DNA from: Leptothermofonsia sichuanensis E412
GTDB lineage: Bacteria > Cyanobacteriota > Cyanobacteriia > Leptolyngbyales > Leptolyngbyaceae
Direction: 5' to 3'
NCBI RefSeq assembly: GCF_019891175.1
Contig: NZ_CP072600.1
Span: 2,480,001 to 2,544,000 of the forward strand
DNA: 64,000 bases
The translations under genes were made by a program, and so were the position numbers. Below the pieces are notes generated by a model. The model saw nothing but the letters and a program-made list of their open reading frames with translations. It was not told where the DNA came from and searched no databases. Shown here one piece after another: positions 1-22,738 of the stretch; the first letter of the stretch is position 1; every line of letters starts with the position of its first letter.

Positions 1-2687
1 CCCAAACCTTTGATGCCACAAGGCGTTGAGCACACGGTTAGGTTTGCGTTGTTCTACGTGGCAACGGAGGTTCCCAAACCTTTGATGCCACAAGGCGTTG
101 AGCACGTCCAGAATTTTAGCGTTTTTCGGCAAGATCATACGGTTCCCAAACCTTTGATGCCACAAGGCGTTGAGCACGCTCAGAGGGGAGAACAGGGTAA
201 TCGGTGGGTGGGGGTTCCCAAACCTTTGATGCCACAAGGCGTTGAGCACGGGAGGAGAAAACGTTTGATCCGGGCATCCGAAAGTTCCCAAACCTTTGAT
301 GCCACAAGGCGTTGAGCACTGGATTCATCGGCAACGAACCGGCAATCCCCTAGGGTTCCCAAACCTTTGATGCCACAAGGCGTTGAGCACATTACGATGT
401 TTGGAAACGGCGCGTGGAACGGCAAGTTCCCAAACCTTTGATGCCACAAGGCGTTGAGCACGGAACTGAAATATTAAACGATACAAGAAATTGGCTGGTT
501 CCCAAACCTTTGATGCCACAAGGCGTTGAGCACTCGCTTCTAAGTGGCGTAAAGATTGGGAACCAAATTGTTCCCAAACCTTTGATGCCACAAGGCGTTG
601 AGCACTGATCGCGATCGATTTTGGCAAAGTGTCGTCGACGTTCCCAAACCTTTGATGCCACAAGGCGTTGAGCACGCGCCACTGGGGTTATCACTTTTCA
701 CTCAAGCCAAGCAGGGTTCCCAAACCTTTGATGCCACAAGGCGTTGAGCACTTTGCAAGATTGACGTGGCCAGTCTATACCCGTGGTGTTCCCAAACCTT
801 TGATGCCACAAGGCGTTGAGCACCCGGTTGTTGCGTTGTGTAGCGCTGGTGCAATTGGTTCCCAAACCTTTGATGCCACAAGGCGTTGAGCACGTCATCG
901 CTAATCAAATTTGGTCGGACGTTAAGTAGTTCCCAAACCTTTGATGCCACAAGGCGTTGAGCACACAGTAGGGGATATTGTCTTTACTTATATGGGCGAG
1001 TTCCCAAACCTTTGATGCCACAAGGCGTTGAGCACCTTTGCGATTCATCTCTATTCTGGTGAAAGAGAGGTTCCCAAACCTTTGATGCCACAAGGCGTTG
1101 AGCACTTTTTATTGCTCCTACTACAGACGCAATTCTGGACGTGTTCCCAAACCTTTGATGCCACAAGGCGTTGAGCACGTGGTTGCATGTTGTTATGGAG
1201 ATTGAAACTCCTGAAGTTCCCAAACCTTTGATGCCACAAGGCGTTGAGCACTTGGTCTCAACGAACAAAACAAGGAGAAGAAATGGTTCCCAAACCTTTG
1301 ATGCCACAAGGCGTTGAGCACTTCGTGAATCGCGTGGCCAGGACAATTTTCTTTGAGTTCCCAAACCTTTGATGCCACAAGGCGTTGAGCACATGGTTGA
1401 TATTTCTACTTACAGAGCTTATAAAGGCGTTCCCAAACCTTTGATGCCACAAGGCGTTGAGCACTGTTAAGAACTGATATGAACTTGATCTCCCCCAAGT
1501 TCCCAAACCTTTGATGCCACAAGGCGTTGAGCACCTCCTGGGTCAGCGACTCTAGCACCGCATTAGCGAAGAGTTCCCAAACCTTTGATGCCACAAGGCG
1601 TTGAGCACGTCTAGGATTTTAGCGTTTTTGGGCAGAATCATACGTTCCCAAACCTTTGATGCCACAAGGCGTTGAGCACAAATCCAACATGTTCAATGGA
1701 CTTGGCCAACAAAGAGTTCCCAAACCTTTGATGCCACAAGGCGTTGAGCACACGATATCCACGCCAAATACTTCATCCCGGATAACGGTTCCCAAACCTT
1801 TGATGCCACAAGGCGTTGAGCACGTAAGCCAGTCAACGGATCAAACATTCCGCCTATCGTTCCCAAACCTTTGATGCCACAAGGCGTTGAGCACCTCTGG
1901 GTCCGGTTTGTGTCATATAGCCCTGCCAGGTGTTCCCAAACCTTTGATGCCACAAGGCGTTGAGCACAAGAGATCCTGCAACGCCTGACGGATGCCCAAG
2001 CCCGTTCCCAAACCTTTGATGCCACAAGGCGTTGAGCACTTTTCCTGAGTCCGATATCCGGACCCGGCAATATCGTTCCCAAACCTTTGATGCCACAAGG
2101 CGTTGAGCACAGCAGGGGGTTGCCAAGCAACCCCCTCCCCCCCGCAAGGTTCCCAAACCTTTGATGCCACAAGGCGTTGAGCACTTTTTGCCGGTGTTTT
2201 GCCAGGTTCAGTAGGGGGATCGTTCCCAAACCTTTGATGCCACAAGGCGTTGAGCACTCCGGGATCATTTCAGCGTAGGCTTCTTTTTCTTTTGTTCCCA
2301 AACCTTTGATGCCACAAGGCGTTGAGCACAGGGAACAAGGACATGAGCCTTCGACCGATAACAGGTTCCCAAACCTTTGATGCCACAAGGCGTTGAGCAC
2401 CGATCTGTTCGGAAACCAATTTATTTCACAGATATCGTTCCCAAACCTTTGATGCCACAAGGCGTTGAGCACACGATACCAGAATAAAACTCTCTGTGAT
2501 ATTCAAACGTTCCCAAACCTTTGATGCCACAAGGCGTTGAGCACAAGCAACCCACAAGATACAGGTTTTCCTATCTCTCCTGTTCCCAAACCTTTGATGC
2601 CACAAGGCGTTGAGCACTTTTAATAATCGCTCGTTCTCTTCAAATTCTTTTGTTCCCAAACCTTTGATGCCACAAGGCGTTGAGCAC
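1..2687. CRISPR. CRISPR array, 38 repeats of 36 nt, no cas genes in window
   Basis: On the + strand the repeat starts GTTCCCAAACCTTTGATG and ends GGCGTTGAGCAC. I count 38 copies; the first (1-33) is cut by the window edge and the last is 2652-2687. No mismatch was seen among them by eye. The 37 complete spacers are 34-40 nt, mostly 34-37. A further 34 nt (2688-2721) after the last repeat look like a final spacer cut by an insertion sequence. No cas gene lies in the window, so subtype is not assigned. No leader or degenerate terminal repeat is visible, so the transcribed strand is undetermined. Reading frames across the array are repeat artefacts. Confidence 0.98.
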
Positions 2688-2805
2688 TTGAAGACGCAAA
2701 ACGATTATTGGAGAAACAAGGTATACTTTGCCGGGGTATAGATTTTACCCTCTAGATAAAGTAGAAATGAGGTAGACCGTTGAGTGTTGAGCACGGTGCC
2801 TCCCA

Positions 2806-3950
2806 ATGATCCAACTGAGCTTTAGTGCCGAAGAGATTGAGCAACTACATTACGAACGCTTTCACCATCCACATCCGCGTGTGCAACAAAAAATGGAAGC
2901 GTTGTATCTCAAAAGTCAAGGATACTCGCATCAGGAAATTACCCGGTTGCTTCGGGTGACAAAACCAACGTTGTTGAGCTATCTGCGAGATTATGAAACT
3001 GGGGGGATCGGCAATCTCAAAGAATTGACCTTTTATCGACCCCAGAGTGAACTGAAACAACATCAACAGACTTTGGAAGCATACTTCCGGGCAAATCCTC
3101 CAAAGACCCTAGCGCAGGCTTGCGCCAAGATCGAAGAACTGACTGGTATTGTCCGTAGTCGGGAGCAAGTGAGGGTGTTTCTCAAATCGATGGGGATGCG
3201 TTGTCGGCGAGTGGGGATGTTGCCCGCCAAAGCTGATGTAGAAGCGCAGGAGGAGTTCGTCAAAAAAAACTAGTGGTCTGTCAAATTAAATTTGACAGGT
3301 AACTGAATCCTGAAAGGCTGATTGAAGTTAAATTTTGAGGGTCTGCGACCCGTCAAAATTTTCCTGACGGAACACTAGACCCACGACTGCAAGAGGCAAA
3401 AGCAGGTCAGAGAGCCGTCTTCTTTGTCGATGCTGCCCATTTTGTTCTGGGGGCCTACTTAGGGTTTTTGTGGTGCTTTGAACGCTTGTTTATCAAGTCG
3501 GGGGCAGGAAGGCAACGGTTCAATGTCTTAGGGGCCCTCAACGCCGTGACTCATGCGTTAATCACCGTCACCAATGAGACTTATATCAACGCTCAAAGTG
3601 TCTGTGAATTACTGCACAAACTGGCAGCTCTGGGATTAGACATTCCGATTACGCTTGTGTTGGATAACGCTCGGTATCAGAAGTGTGCGGTTGTGATGGA
3701 GTTGGCTCAATCATTGAACATTGAGTTGTTGTATCTAACGGTCTATTCTCCCAATCTCAACTTGATTGAGCGCTTGTGGAAGTTTGTCAAGAAGCAATGC
3801 TTATATTCGATTTATTATGCTGACTTCTCTGCATTTAAGGAGGCGATTACTGCTTGTCTCAACCAGTGTCATACGACGTATAAACCTGAGTTAGATTCAC
3901 TGTTAACCTTGCGTTTTCAGTCCTTTAAACAAGTAAAAACTATACCCTGA
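2806..3950 (+). pseudogene. IS630-family transposase, split by a MITE
   Basis: The first part (2806-3273, 155 aa) is the helix-turn-helix half: a helical N-terminus, then a winged-helix region ending at VKKN and a stop. The second part (3468-3950) holds the DDE catalytic half, with LVLDNARYQK as the second Asp motif and SPNLNLIERLW as the terminal Glu motif. The halves are separated by the MITE at 3271-3377, whose CTAG supplies the stop. Without the MITE, the run of eight A at 3262-3269 would need a -1 slip to join the halves, which is usual for this family. As it stands the gene cannot make a full transposase. Confidence 0.85.
3271..3377. mobile_element. 105-bp CTAG-flanked MITE inside the IS630-type element
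   Basis: The insert is absent from the otherwise matching element copy at 40315. It begins CTAGTGGTCTGTCAAAT and ends with a CTAG at 3375-3378, giving TA duplicated within CTAG. Internal inverted sequences AAATTTTGA...TCAAAATTT form a hairpin. A near-identical copy of the same length is at 24379-24485. The end resembles that of the IS630-type element at 27031 (CTAGTAGTCTGTCAA), so that element may mobilise it (inference). Confidence 0.85.
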
Positions 3951-5910
3951 CAAGGTATAGTATATCTGGATAGATTTCATAACCTTCGACGATTCTGCGT
4001 AGTGCTGAACATTGCACTCGCCAATCATTGTCTTCTAAAAACTGTGATTTCAGCCAATCTAAAATATTCAGCGAATTTTTGTAGTGCACAAAAACTACAC
4101 TCATTGATGCGCGTCGGATAAGCCAGTCTTTATGTTGCTGCGCTCTTTGTTGAAACCAGACTAAAAGCTCTGGGTCATCCTTATAGTTTTCAGCGATCGC
4201 CCATATTGCTGCATGGGATAAATCTTGATGTCGATGTTGCAGTATCAATTCCTTCAGCCACGGTAAGGTGATTGAAGAATGCCGATAGTACAGTGCAACG
4301 ATATTCACTGTTGCGCGTCGCACTACCCAATCATCATGTAGTGCTTGCTGTTGTAGCCATGTCAAGAGGTTCAAATTTGGGAAACACCGAGCGACTCGGT
4401 CGAGTAGTGCGATCGCTGACTCTTCAGTCAAATGAATACTGGGTTGTTCAATCTCATCTTTAAGCTTCGCCAATAATAGGTTTTCTAACTGTGAAGTCGA
4501 TGTAGAGTTTTTGACATCTGACAAGCAATCCGCAGCGAGCAAAAGGTTCGATAAACCCTCAGGCTTCAAAAAAGTTGCCATCTCATCTTGTGGAGAGAAA
4601 TACATTTTCCTGATGCCTAAAAACAGAGTTCTATCGCATTCTCTCGTGAGCAAAAACTCAATCAATTCACCTGCAAACTTAGAATCGATCGCCCCACAAA
4701 TCACCCTCAGCACCTCATGCCAGGTTTCATCTTGCCAGTGTTGCCCAAATACTTCATCACGTAGCTGTTCAAAAGTGAGGGTGCGCTGTTTCTCGAAGCG
4801 ATGGACAATTTCAACCGCACAGAAATATTCTAAGAAGGTACGGTGCATGAAGCCGTAGGTATCAGCACCGCGATAGCAGAGGATGAAGTTACGTTCGCGC
4901 AGTTGTTGAATCAACCGATTGGCTTTTTCGCGGGGTTCGCTGAAACCCTGATCACGTAAATAGTCGGTCAAAATGCGGGTGAGGCGGTCACTACTAATCA
5001 AATTTCCCTTCAGCCCCTCCTCCCCTGCCTGCATCTCATAAGCAATCAGTCGCAACATCTCCTGTTTTTCCCGTCGCCCGATCGCATCCATTGGTAGTTG
5101 CAATCGCTTGTGATCCACGTCCCAGTGGTAAAGCAACACGCGCGAAGCTTGGTCATAGAGATCAGCGCGATCGCGGGGTAACTCCTGCCTCCGATTCAGA
5201 ATTGCCATCATCGTCAACAACAGGGGATTATCTGCCAGATTGGAGATTGCTTTGGAATTAGTGATCGCATCCTGCAATCGCTGTTTCAACCGCACTTTAT
5301 TGGGATCGCTGCCCATTGATAGGTCATACCAGCGATGAATGAATTCGTGAATCTCGTCGGTATTGAGGGATTGAATCGTGAAGTGCCGAAAACCGCTATG
5401 TTGAAGTTGTTCGGGGTTATAGCCAATAATTCGAGACGTAACCAGTACTTGGGCTTTAGGATATTGCCGCGAAAAGCGAATGATGTCGTTGATAACAGTC
5501 GATTGAGTGGCGCGATCAAACACCTCATCCAAACCATCAAACATTATCAGTGTAGGAAACTCCACCAAATGCTGATGAAGCTGATGCTGATCAAACTGCC
5601 AATCTACACCCCGACCTCGATGCAGAAATTCCAGGAAGTTCGCAGATGGATTGATAGCAAATTCCCGCAACTCAATCAATAATGGCAGTTTCTCTGTTTT
5701 GCCTTCGACCCATTCCAGCGCCAGATATTGTAACAGACTCGACTTACCCGATCCCGGATCACCTAAAACCACCGCCCGTTGCGAGTCTGCTATCGCTTCT
5801 AAGACCTTTCGTGCAGGTCGCTGAAAATACTCATGGCGATAATGCTCTAAGGCTTCAGGTAATAAATCTGCTTCGAGTTGTCCTTCAGCTTGCAGTAAAG
5901 TGTACCCCAT
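3940..5910 (-). pseudogene. NACHT NTPase, central and C-terminal part (truncated)
   Basis: This fragment carries a Walker A motif (GDPGSGKSS near residue 50), a Walker B motif (LIMFDGLDEVFD near residue 120) and the downstream winged-helix region of a NACHT STAND ATPase. About 250 residues of HEAT-like helical repeats follow (for example WVVRRATVNIVALYYRHSS). Bacterial NACHT proteins are known antiphage sensors; the role here is inferred. The 3' end runs into the IS630-type element, so the last codons come from that element. The 5' side is cut by an IS3 element. The N-terminal portion is at 7150-7923. Confidence 0.85.
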
Positions 5911-22655: not shown

Positions 22656-22738
22656 GTGCTCAACGCCTTGTGGCATCAAAGGTTTGGAAACTGCACCAGG
22701 CAGATGGCTTCAAACAGAAAACTGCGTGCTCAACGCCT
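22656..22738 (-). CRISPR. CRISPR relic: repeat, 34-nt spacer, half repeat
   Basis: 22656-22691 equals the reverse complement of the main array repeat with one mismatch (third base from the array-side start). It is followed by 34 nt, within the main array's spacer length range. At 22726 comes GTGCTCAACGCCT, the first 13 bases of the same strand of the repeat, after which the match ends. It lies 20 kb from the array in opposite orientation, next to mobile-element debris. Confidence 0.85.

What the first reader, a model, noticed from the sequence alone, without database searches (positions are those of the whole stretch)
106..1643. Two spacers differ at five bases, all synonymous in one frame
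Spacer 106-141 and spacer 1609-1643 align over 35 bases with five differences. On the minus strand both read M-I-L-P-K-N-A-K-I-L-D, and every difference is silent (ATC/ATT, TTG/CTG, CCG/CCC, ATT/ATC, CTG/CTA). The two spacers therefore come from the same codons of diverged relatives under protein-level selection, taken in the same strand sense. This points to repeated sampling of one conserved phage or plasmid gene, about 21 spacers apart.
Basis: seen in the sequence. Interest (0 to 1): 0.75.

Follow-up and report, generated by a model that had tools for sequence, protein, structure and literature searches.

The report
CRISPR memory resampling one evolving gene
A long bacterial CRISPR array stored the same short piece of one gene three separate times, each time from a slightly different relative whose protein sequence had not changed; it is a clean example of a known behaviour rather than a new kind of system.

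Summary
Spacers 106-141 (s220) and 1609-1643 (s241) differ at five of 35 bases, all silent in one minus-strand frame. The array continues left of the window (256 repeats, 255 spacers) and holds a third version, s127. All three encode M-I-L-P-K-N-A-K-I-L-D; all seven variable sites are silent (3 of 20,000 simulated trios do as well). Eight further spacer sites recur in register; three of the four exact ones differ in 3' length, which speaks for re-acquisition rather than copying. In-array mutation is very unlikely: one of 256 repeats carries a substitution. The system is type I-B 'Myxan' with its leader on the left, so the window holds the oldest spacers. No source DNA was found in the phage, plasmid, viral-contig and genome searches made. 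A methyltransferase gene is the best lead, but the inferred PAM argues against it. The same behaviour is reported in Legionella (PMC5071653).

The parts
1..2687 (+). Trailer (oldest) end of a 256-repeat type I-B CRISPR array, repeat GTTCCCAAACCTTTGATGCCACAAGGCGTTGAGCAC; the array starts 15.6 kb left of the window (G000:C1:2464370-2482687)
   Evidence: cas2 and the leader lie on the left
106..141 (+). Spacer s220; reads R-M-I-L-P-K-N-A-K-I-L-D on the minus strand
1609..1643 (+). Spacer s241, oldest of the three versions by array position; same peptide (M-I-L-P-K-N-A-K-I-L-D), 5 silent differences from s220, 6 from s127 (s127 lies outside the window at G000:C1:2473437-2473472)
2473..2508 (+). 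Spacer s253; overlaps s104 (left of the window) with an 8-base shift, H-R-E-F-Y-S-G-I versus H-K-E-F-Y-S-G-L on the minus strand; the one recurring target that I accept out of register
1179..1215 (+). Spacer s235; reads W-L-H-V-V-M-E-I-E-T-P-E, matching in frame the thyX gene of an Acinetobacter phage at 26 of 28 bases (E 0.8, weak)

Best explanation
A type I-B (Myxan) CRISPR-Cas system, with a Cas4-Cas1 fusion and Cas2, captured the same protospacer at least three times, from relatives of one mobile element, most likely a phage lineage. SHOWN: three spacers in one array with the same 5' boundary and only silent differences; eight other sites recurring with the same 5' boundary. INFERRED: capture was at the leader, so the order was s241, s220, s127; the 5' boundary is fixed by the PAM, so any second sample of that spot lands in register; the differences are substitutions that built up in the target gene under selection for its protein; recurrence is expected because the array is very long and keeps meeting the same lineages. 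The older copies lie far from the leader and, for s241 and s220, mismatch the next version in the PAM-proximal stretch, so a new capture would restore protection.
For: All seven variable sites in s127/s220/s241 are silent in one frame, six of them in the same (wobble) phase; simulation 3 of 20,000. One substitution in 256 repeats of 36 bases, against 3 to 6 per 35-36 bases between the spacers. 11 of 32,385 spacer pairs recur in register, at nine sites involving 19 of 255 spacers. Exact recurrences s76/s154, s107/s185 and s193/s203 share the 5' end but have lengths 36/34, 34/35 and 35/37, as expected of separate integrations. s56/s134 differ at two sites, both silent (two changes alone would be silent in some frame in 35% of simulations, so this pair adds little); s52/s202 differ at ten sites, eight in one codon phase, with three residue changes. 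Gene order WYL-cas6-cas3-cas8-cas7-cas5-...-cas4/cas1-cas2-leader-array puts the leader on the left.
Against: No source DNA found, so 'phage' is inference. The inferred PAM (AYG) could not be checked on any protospacer. s148/s182 carry an indel, and s49/s194 differ by four or more residues in every open frame, no better than random changes, so not every recurring site shows coding constraint. s129/s143 are identical at both ends and could be a plain duplication. If captures fell evenly on all AYG or ATG sites, one to two shifted overlaps per in-register near-identical pair would be expected and I accept none; PAM-limited even sampling alone therefore fits poorly.
Confidence: 0.88

Rival explanations
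1. Primed re-acquisition: the older crRNA, now imperfectly matched, guided Cascade and Cas3 to the new relative and fed fragments of the very same site into the array. This is a variant of the best explanation, differing in how the site was chosen.
For: Recurring sites are locked in register: five near-identical pairs (s129/143 set aside) and no accepted shifted near-identical overlap; P 0.002-0.007 for an AYG PAM and 0.015-0.033 for ATG under even sampling. s241 mismatches s220 at spacer positions 4 and 7 (among others), and s220 mismatches s127 at position 1. Older-mismatched and newer-matched pairs were read as natural priming in Legionella (PMC5071653, passages read).
Against: If the T-rich pair s206/s216 (15 shared bases at a shift of 6) is counted as a shifted overlap, the P values rise to 0.01-0.11. 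Four sites recur with identical sequence and s134/s56 differ only at positions 16 and 25, so no escape was needed there. Priming usually spreads captures around the primed site (recalled), whereas one shifted overlap (s104/s253) was accepted in all. Plain hot spots explain the lock as well.
Confidence: 0.25
2. The spacer was duplicated inside the array and the copies then mutated.
For: Duplication is the commonest class of repeated spacers across arrays: 695 of 805 duplication candidates (PMC11472070, table passage read).
Against: One of 256 repeats carries a substitution, so 3 to 6 changes in 35 bases are not expected to build up in place; the changes are all silent; neighbouring spacers are not shared; ends differ among three of the four exact copies.
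Confidence: 0.02
3. Blocks of spacers were imported by recombination with the array of another strain that had sampled a different relative.
For: Three of the 11 recurring pairs share the same offset of 78 spacers (P about 0.004, post hoc), which a block event might cause.
Against: The other spacers at offset 78 are no more alike than at other offsets (rank 76 of 195). No spacer is shared with the five related arrays examined (216 spacers). It still needs independent capture somewhere.
Confidence: 0.04
4. The similarity is chance or a low-complexity effect.
For: Short T-rich matches such as s86/s206/s216 do occur in the array.
Against: Ten pairs share 14-mers (one of them the T-rich s206/s216) against a mean of 0.15 in 20 shuffles; best shuffled in-register identity 0.68 in 50 sets.
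Confidence: 0.005

Closest known systems
Legionella pneumophila Toronto-2005 type I-C array, pairs of spacers on overlapping regions of LME-1 (PMC5071653)
   Same: Within one array, an older spacer mismatches and a newer one matches the same region of a recurring element; [quoted passage not shown]
   Different: There the target element is known and PAM and seed were compared with it; here the target is unknown, the subtype is I-B, three versions are present, and silent divergence shows the coding frame without the target.
Synechocystis sp. PCC 6714 type I-B Myxan Cascade (PMC11096372, passages read; PDB 8h67, 8h7q, 8ip0)
   Same: Same Cas8b (Cmx8) and Cas5 families (E 1.8e-113 and 2e-63); PAM-reading loops GVP and GNS and wedge residue N332 are conserved (residue numbers counted by me on the alignment).
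   Different: S333 of the wedge is N here; PAM use by this system is untested.
Reacquisition class of SpacerPlacer (PMC11472070, passages read)
   Same: Re-insertion of the same spacer at the leader end.
   Different: That survey calls only 8 of 805 duplication candidates reacquisitions; here silent divergence and 3'-length differences mark re-acquisition within a single array.

Membership tests
Type I-B (Myxan) CRISPR-Cas system | Cas8b of the Cmx8 family | tested here: met
   TIGR04413, E 1.7e-220, and Pfam Cas8b_N/Cas8b_C
Type I-B (Myxan) CRISPR-Cas system | Cas3, Cas5 (DevS), Cas7 (Cst2/DevR) and Cas6/Cmx6 in one operon | tested here: met
   Cas5 (111.3 against 111.5 bits) and Cas7 (66.3 against 72.75 bits) score just under the curated cut-offs, and Cas5 matches the solved Myxan Cas5 at E 2e-63
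Type I-B (Myxan) CRISPR-Cas system | Adaptation genes (Cas4-Cas1, Cas2) next to the array | tested here: met
   cas1_MYXAN TIGR03983 (573.7 bits, cut-off 358) and Cas4 TIGR00372 in one protein; Cas2 TIGR01573 (55 bits, cut-off 24.5)
Type I-B (Myxan) CRISPR-Cas system | AYG PAM on the 5' side of the protospacer | tested here: inconclusive
   PAM-reading residues conserved; no protospacer available to read the flank
Re-acquired or updated spacers (Legionella-like) | Same or overlapping target represented more than once in one array, not by array duplication | tested here: met
Re-acquired or updated spacers (Legionella-like) | Newer spacer matches the contemporary element better than the older | not testable with these tools
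   no matching element found
Spacers against a phage class I methyltransferase | Peptide lies just before motif I, D-x-G | tested here: inconclusive
   24 of 27 viral-contig hits to LPKNAKILD are followed by x-G, and the two of these 27 checked in full (L032, L036) are methyltransferases; but an AYG PAM would make the next codon CRT (His or Arg), seen in 0 of 27, and the residues before LPKNAKILD differ (R-M-I here)
RNA-derived spacers (RT-Cas1) | Reverse transcriptase fused to Cas1 | tested here: not met
   Cas1 is fused to Cas4 and no RT domain was reported in that protein; a separate RT gene elsewhere was not searched for

The most novel reading that the evidence does not exclude
Choice of protospacer in this I-B system is not merely PAM-limited but strongly focused: a small set of preferred sites is captured again and again as the target lineage drifts, so one array is a dated series of haplotypes of the same phage sites, with divergence rising with array distance (Spearman 0.70 over 11 pairs, two-sided P 0.017; 0.60, P 0.07 without the dependent pair s127/241; 0.52, P 0.15 also without s129/143).
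Probability: 0.2. Interest if true: 0.5.

Novelty: new member of a known kind. Interest (0 to 1): 0.32.

Why it matters
Silent divergence between spacers shows, with no target genome in hand, that a spacer came from a gene, which strand encodes it and that its protein was conserved. Together with 3'-length differences it separates re-acquisition from copying within one array. If the trend of divergence with array distance holds in more arrays, long arrays could be read as time series of phage evolution. The biological event itself, an outdated memory renewed at the same site, is already described.

Tried and rejected
Searches for the source that failed: whole array against phages in three pieces (apart from the weak thyX match no hit) and plasmids in three pieces (seven cyanobacterial plasmids, best places at 60-80% identity, mostly many places per record, taken as other arrays; I did not open those records); the peptide as a doubled 24-residue query against phages (two records of one phage at E 8, ignored); exact scans of viral contigs with degenerate codon patterns for MILPKNAKILD (none), two relaxed forms (9 and 27 hits, 33 of 36 continuing with the x-G of methyltransferases), a third relaxed form (none), a PAM-informed form (one hit with a different peptide in an 88-residue frame, taken as chance), TIVFTPFGPND of s56/s134 (none), the s52/s202 peptide (none), the s235 peptide (none); genome contigs (none); 388 genomes of the class (own array only).

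Rejected ideas: a CreTA-like antitoxin RNA at the lone repeat near 22656: the sequence that follows it is the end of an element present at two other places in the genome and in two relatives, with an IS110-like transposase frame nearby (28.2 bits, just under Pfam's cut-off), so I read it as a cut relic; its 34-nt spacer has no other match in the genome at up to 3 mismatches and the seed scan is near chance (3 matches, 0.9 expected). A block duplication behind the shared offset of 78: the rest of the block is unrelated.

Dropped or mended rows: two of 103 intervals in L068 were left out for length; L068 joins two sets of repeats. s148/s182 was counted as in register although it needs a one-base indel. 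The T-rich pairs s206/s216 and s86/s206, and a 13-base reverse-strand match s20/s45, were not counted as shared targets. In one search I had entered s148/s182 at 9/36 differences; with the gap aligned it is 6/36, and the trend was recomputed (Spearman 0.65 became 0.70).

Full report
WHAT WAS CHECKED. The window cuts an array in two: the genome (one contig, 6.43 Mb) holds 256 copies of the repeat in this orientation, from G000:C1:2464370 to 2482687, with 255 spacers, 242 of them 34 to 38 nt long.

THE SYSTEM AND ITS DIRECTION. Left of the array lie a WYL regulator, cas6 (Cmx6), cas3, cas8 (Cmx8; TIGR04413, E 1.7e-220), cas7, cas5, a Uma2-like gene, a split IS630-type transposase, a Cas4-Cas1 fusion (cas1_MYXAN), cas2, then about 260 bases of leader. 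This is type I-B 'Myxan', as in Synechocystis 6714 (PMC11096372, passages read). New spacers therefore enter on the left, and the window holds the oldest ones. The order of capture is s241, then s220, then s127, if capture was always at the leader (inference).

THE THIRD COPY. All-against-all comparison of the 255 spacers (32,385 pairs, both strands) finds s127, 36 nt, with 3 differences from s220 and 6 from s241. Over the three, seven sites vary (positions 1, 4, 7, 22, 27, 28, 34), six in the same codon phase and the seventh a first-position leucine change; all are silent.

THE WIDER PATTERN. Eight other sites recur. Four have identical shared sequence (s76/154, s107/185, s129/143, s193/203) and four are diverged (s56/134 at 2 sites, both silent; s49/194 at 9; s52/202 at 10; s148/182 at 5 plus a one-base indel). 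The two members of each pair start at the same base. In all this is 11 in-register pairs, nine sites and 19 of 255 spacers. Shuffled spacers never exceeded 0.68 in-register identity (50 sets); the weakest ungapped pair here has 0.71. Three of the four identical pairs have different lengths (36/34, 34/35, 35/37), so the 3' ends were set separately; that speaks for separate integration and against copying. One further pair, s104/s253, overlaps with a shift of eight bases and encodes HKEFYSGL/HREFYSGI. Coding constraint is clear for the trio, suggestive for s52/202 (3 residue changes from 10 differences, simulation P 0.04) and not shown for s49/194, s104/253 (simulation P near 0.6 for both) or s56/134 (0.35) taken alone.

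WHY NOT MUTATION IN PLACE. Of 256 repeats one carries a single substitution. A process that put 3 to 6 changes into 35-base spacers would have marked most repeats, and would not choose silent sites.

HOW OFTEN SHOULD THIS HAPPEN? 11 of 32,385 pairs corresponds to an even pool of about 2,900 sites, of the order of the AYG sites in one genome of some 50 kb (3,690 per simulated 60 kb). Five arrays of related genomes (101, 24, 41, 15 and 35 spacers) gave one in-register pair in all, an identical one in the largest, and no spacer shared with this array. The number of recurrences here is thus plausibly a matter of array length. The register is tighter than even PAM-only sampling predicts: about one to two shifted overlaps per in-register pair would be expected among near-identical pairs and I accept none (five pairs, the possible duplicate s129/143 left out: P 0.002-0.007 for AYG, 0.015-0.033 for ATG). 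If the T-rich overlap s206/s216 is counted, the P values are 0.01-0.03 and 0.06-0.11. Preferred sites or priming could explain it; numbers are small and the adaptation PAM is unknown. Divergence rises with array distance (Spearman 0.70, two-sided P 0.017, 11 pairs), but the trend weakens to P 0.07 and 0.15 as the dependent and the doubtful pair are left out; s220/241 and s148/182 go against it.

WHAT GENE? Not established. No protospacer was found in the phage, plasmid, viral-contig and genome searches. The core peptide LPKNAKILD occurs in 27 viral-contig stretches; in 24 it is followed by x-G as in motif I of class I methyltransferases (motif recalled), and the two full frames I scanned from this set (2 of 27, L032 and L036) match Methyltransf_23/11. 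These hits are redundant (23 distinct frames among the 36 stretches) and differ from the spacers in the residues before the peptide. Against a methyltransferase: the PAM-reading loops GNS (Cas5) and GVP (Cas8) and N332 are conserved with the Synechocystis Cascade, which prefers AYG; AYG next to these spacers would place His or Arg after the Asp, found in 0 of 27. I hold the methyltransferase at about one in three. That the array samples phage genes in general has one weak positive: s235 matches thyX of Acinetobacter phage phiAB441 at 26 of 28 bases, in the annotated frame (E 0.8).

FUNCTION. If type I seed rules hold (recalled, not tested), s241 would be weakened on the s220 version (mismatches at positions 4 and 7, and three further in) and s220 on the s127 version (position 1, and two further in), so each capture would restore protection. 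But identical recurrences show that re-capture does not need escape; the distance of old spacers from the leader may suffice (inference; a review passage read, PMC8047081, says leader-adjacent spacers give stronger interference).

KNOWN OR NEW. [quoted passage not shown] A survey of arrays finds reacquisition rare (8 of 805 duplication candidates, PMC11472070, passages read). My literature searches (open-access library, capped lists, titles and abstract openings only) listed no paper whose title or abstract opening announces silent divergence between spacers of one array as evidence; I read passages of four papers in all. The case is a new, unusually clean member of a known kind.

Noticed in passing
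window 1179-1215 (spacer s235): Spacer reads WLHVVMEIETPE and matches thyX of Acinetobacter phage phiAB441 in frame at 26 of 28 bases (E 0.8), a possible thyX target.
   Followed up: partly
window 22656-22735, minus strand: A lone copy of the array repeat (one mismatch), a 34-nt spacer and a cut second repeat; from 22736 the sequence is the end of an element found at two other places in the genome and in two relatives, with an IS110-like frame beyond. Read as a relic of another array cut by a transposon.
   Followed up: yes
G000:C1, spacers s56/134, s76/154, s107/185 (left of the window): Three of the 11 recurring pairs are exactly 78 spacers apart (P about 0.004, post hoc), although the spacers between are unrelated. 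Unexplained; probably chance.
   Followed up: partly
window 2688-3960: The array ends in a split IS630-family transposase (2806-3273 and 3468-3950), and a piece of the repeat end, GTTGAGCAC, lies at 2786-2794; older spacers may have been lost here.
   Followed up: partly
L009:14354-16839: A Uma2-like gene and a split IS630 transposase sit inside the cas operon, between cas5 and the cas4-cas1 fusion.
   Followed up: no
window 3940-5910, minus strand: A NACHT ATPase with HEAT repeats lies next to the array's old end; a possible STAND-type defence protein.
   Followed up: no
G000:C1 spacers s86, s206, s216 (left of the window): T-rich spacers whose reverse strand looks like ribosome-binding sites followed by start codons; their partial likeness may be convergent.
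   Followed up: no
G000:C1 spacers s148/s182 (left of the window): A diverged recurring pair with a one-base indel, so probably non-coding, in contrast to the trio.
   Followed up: no
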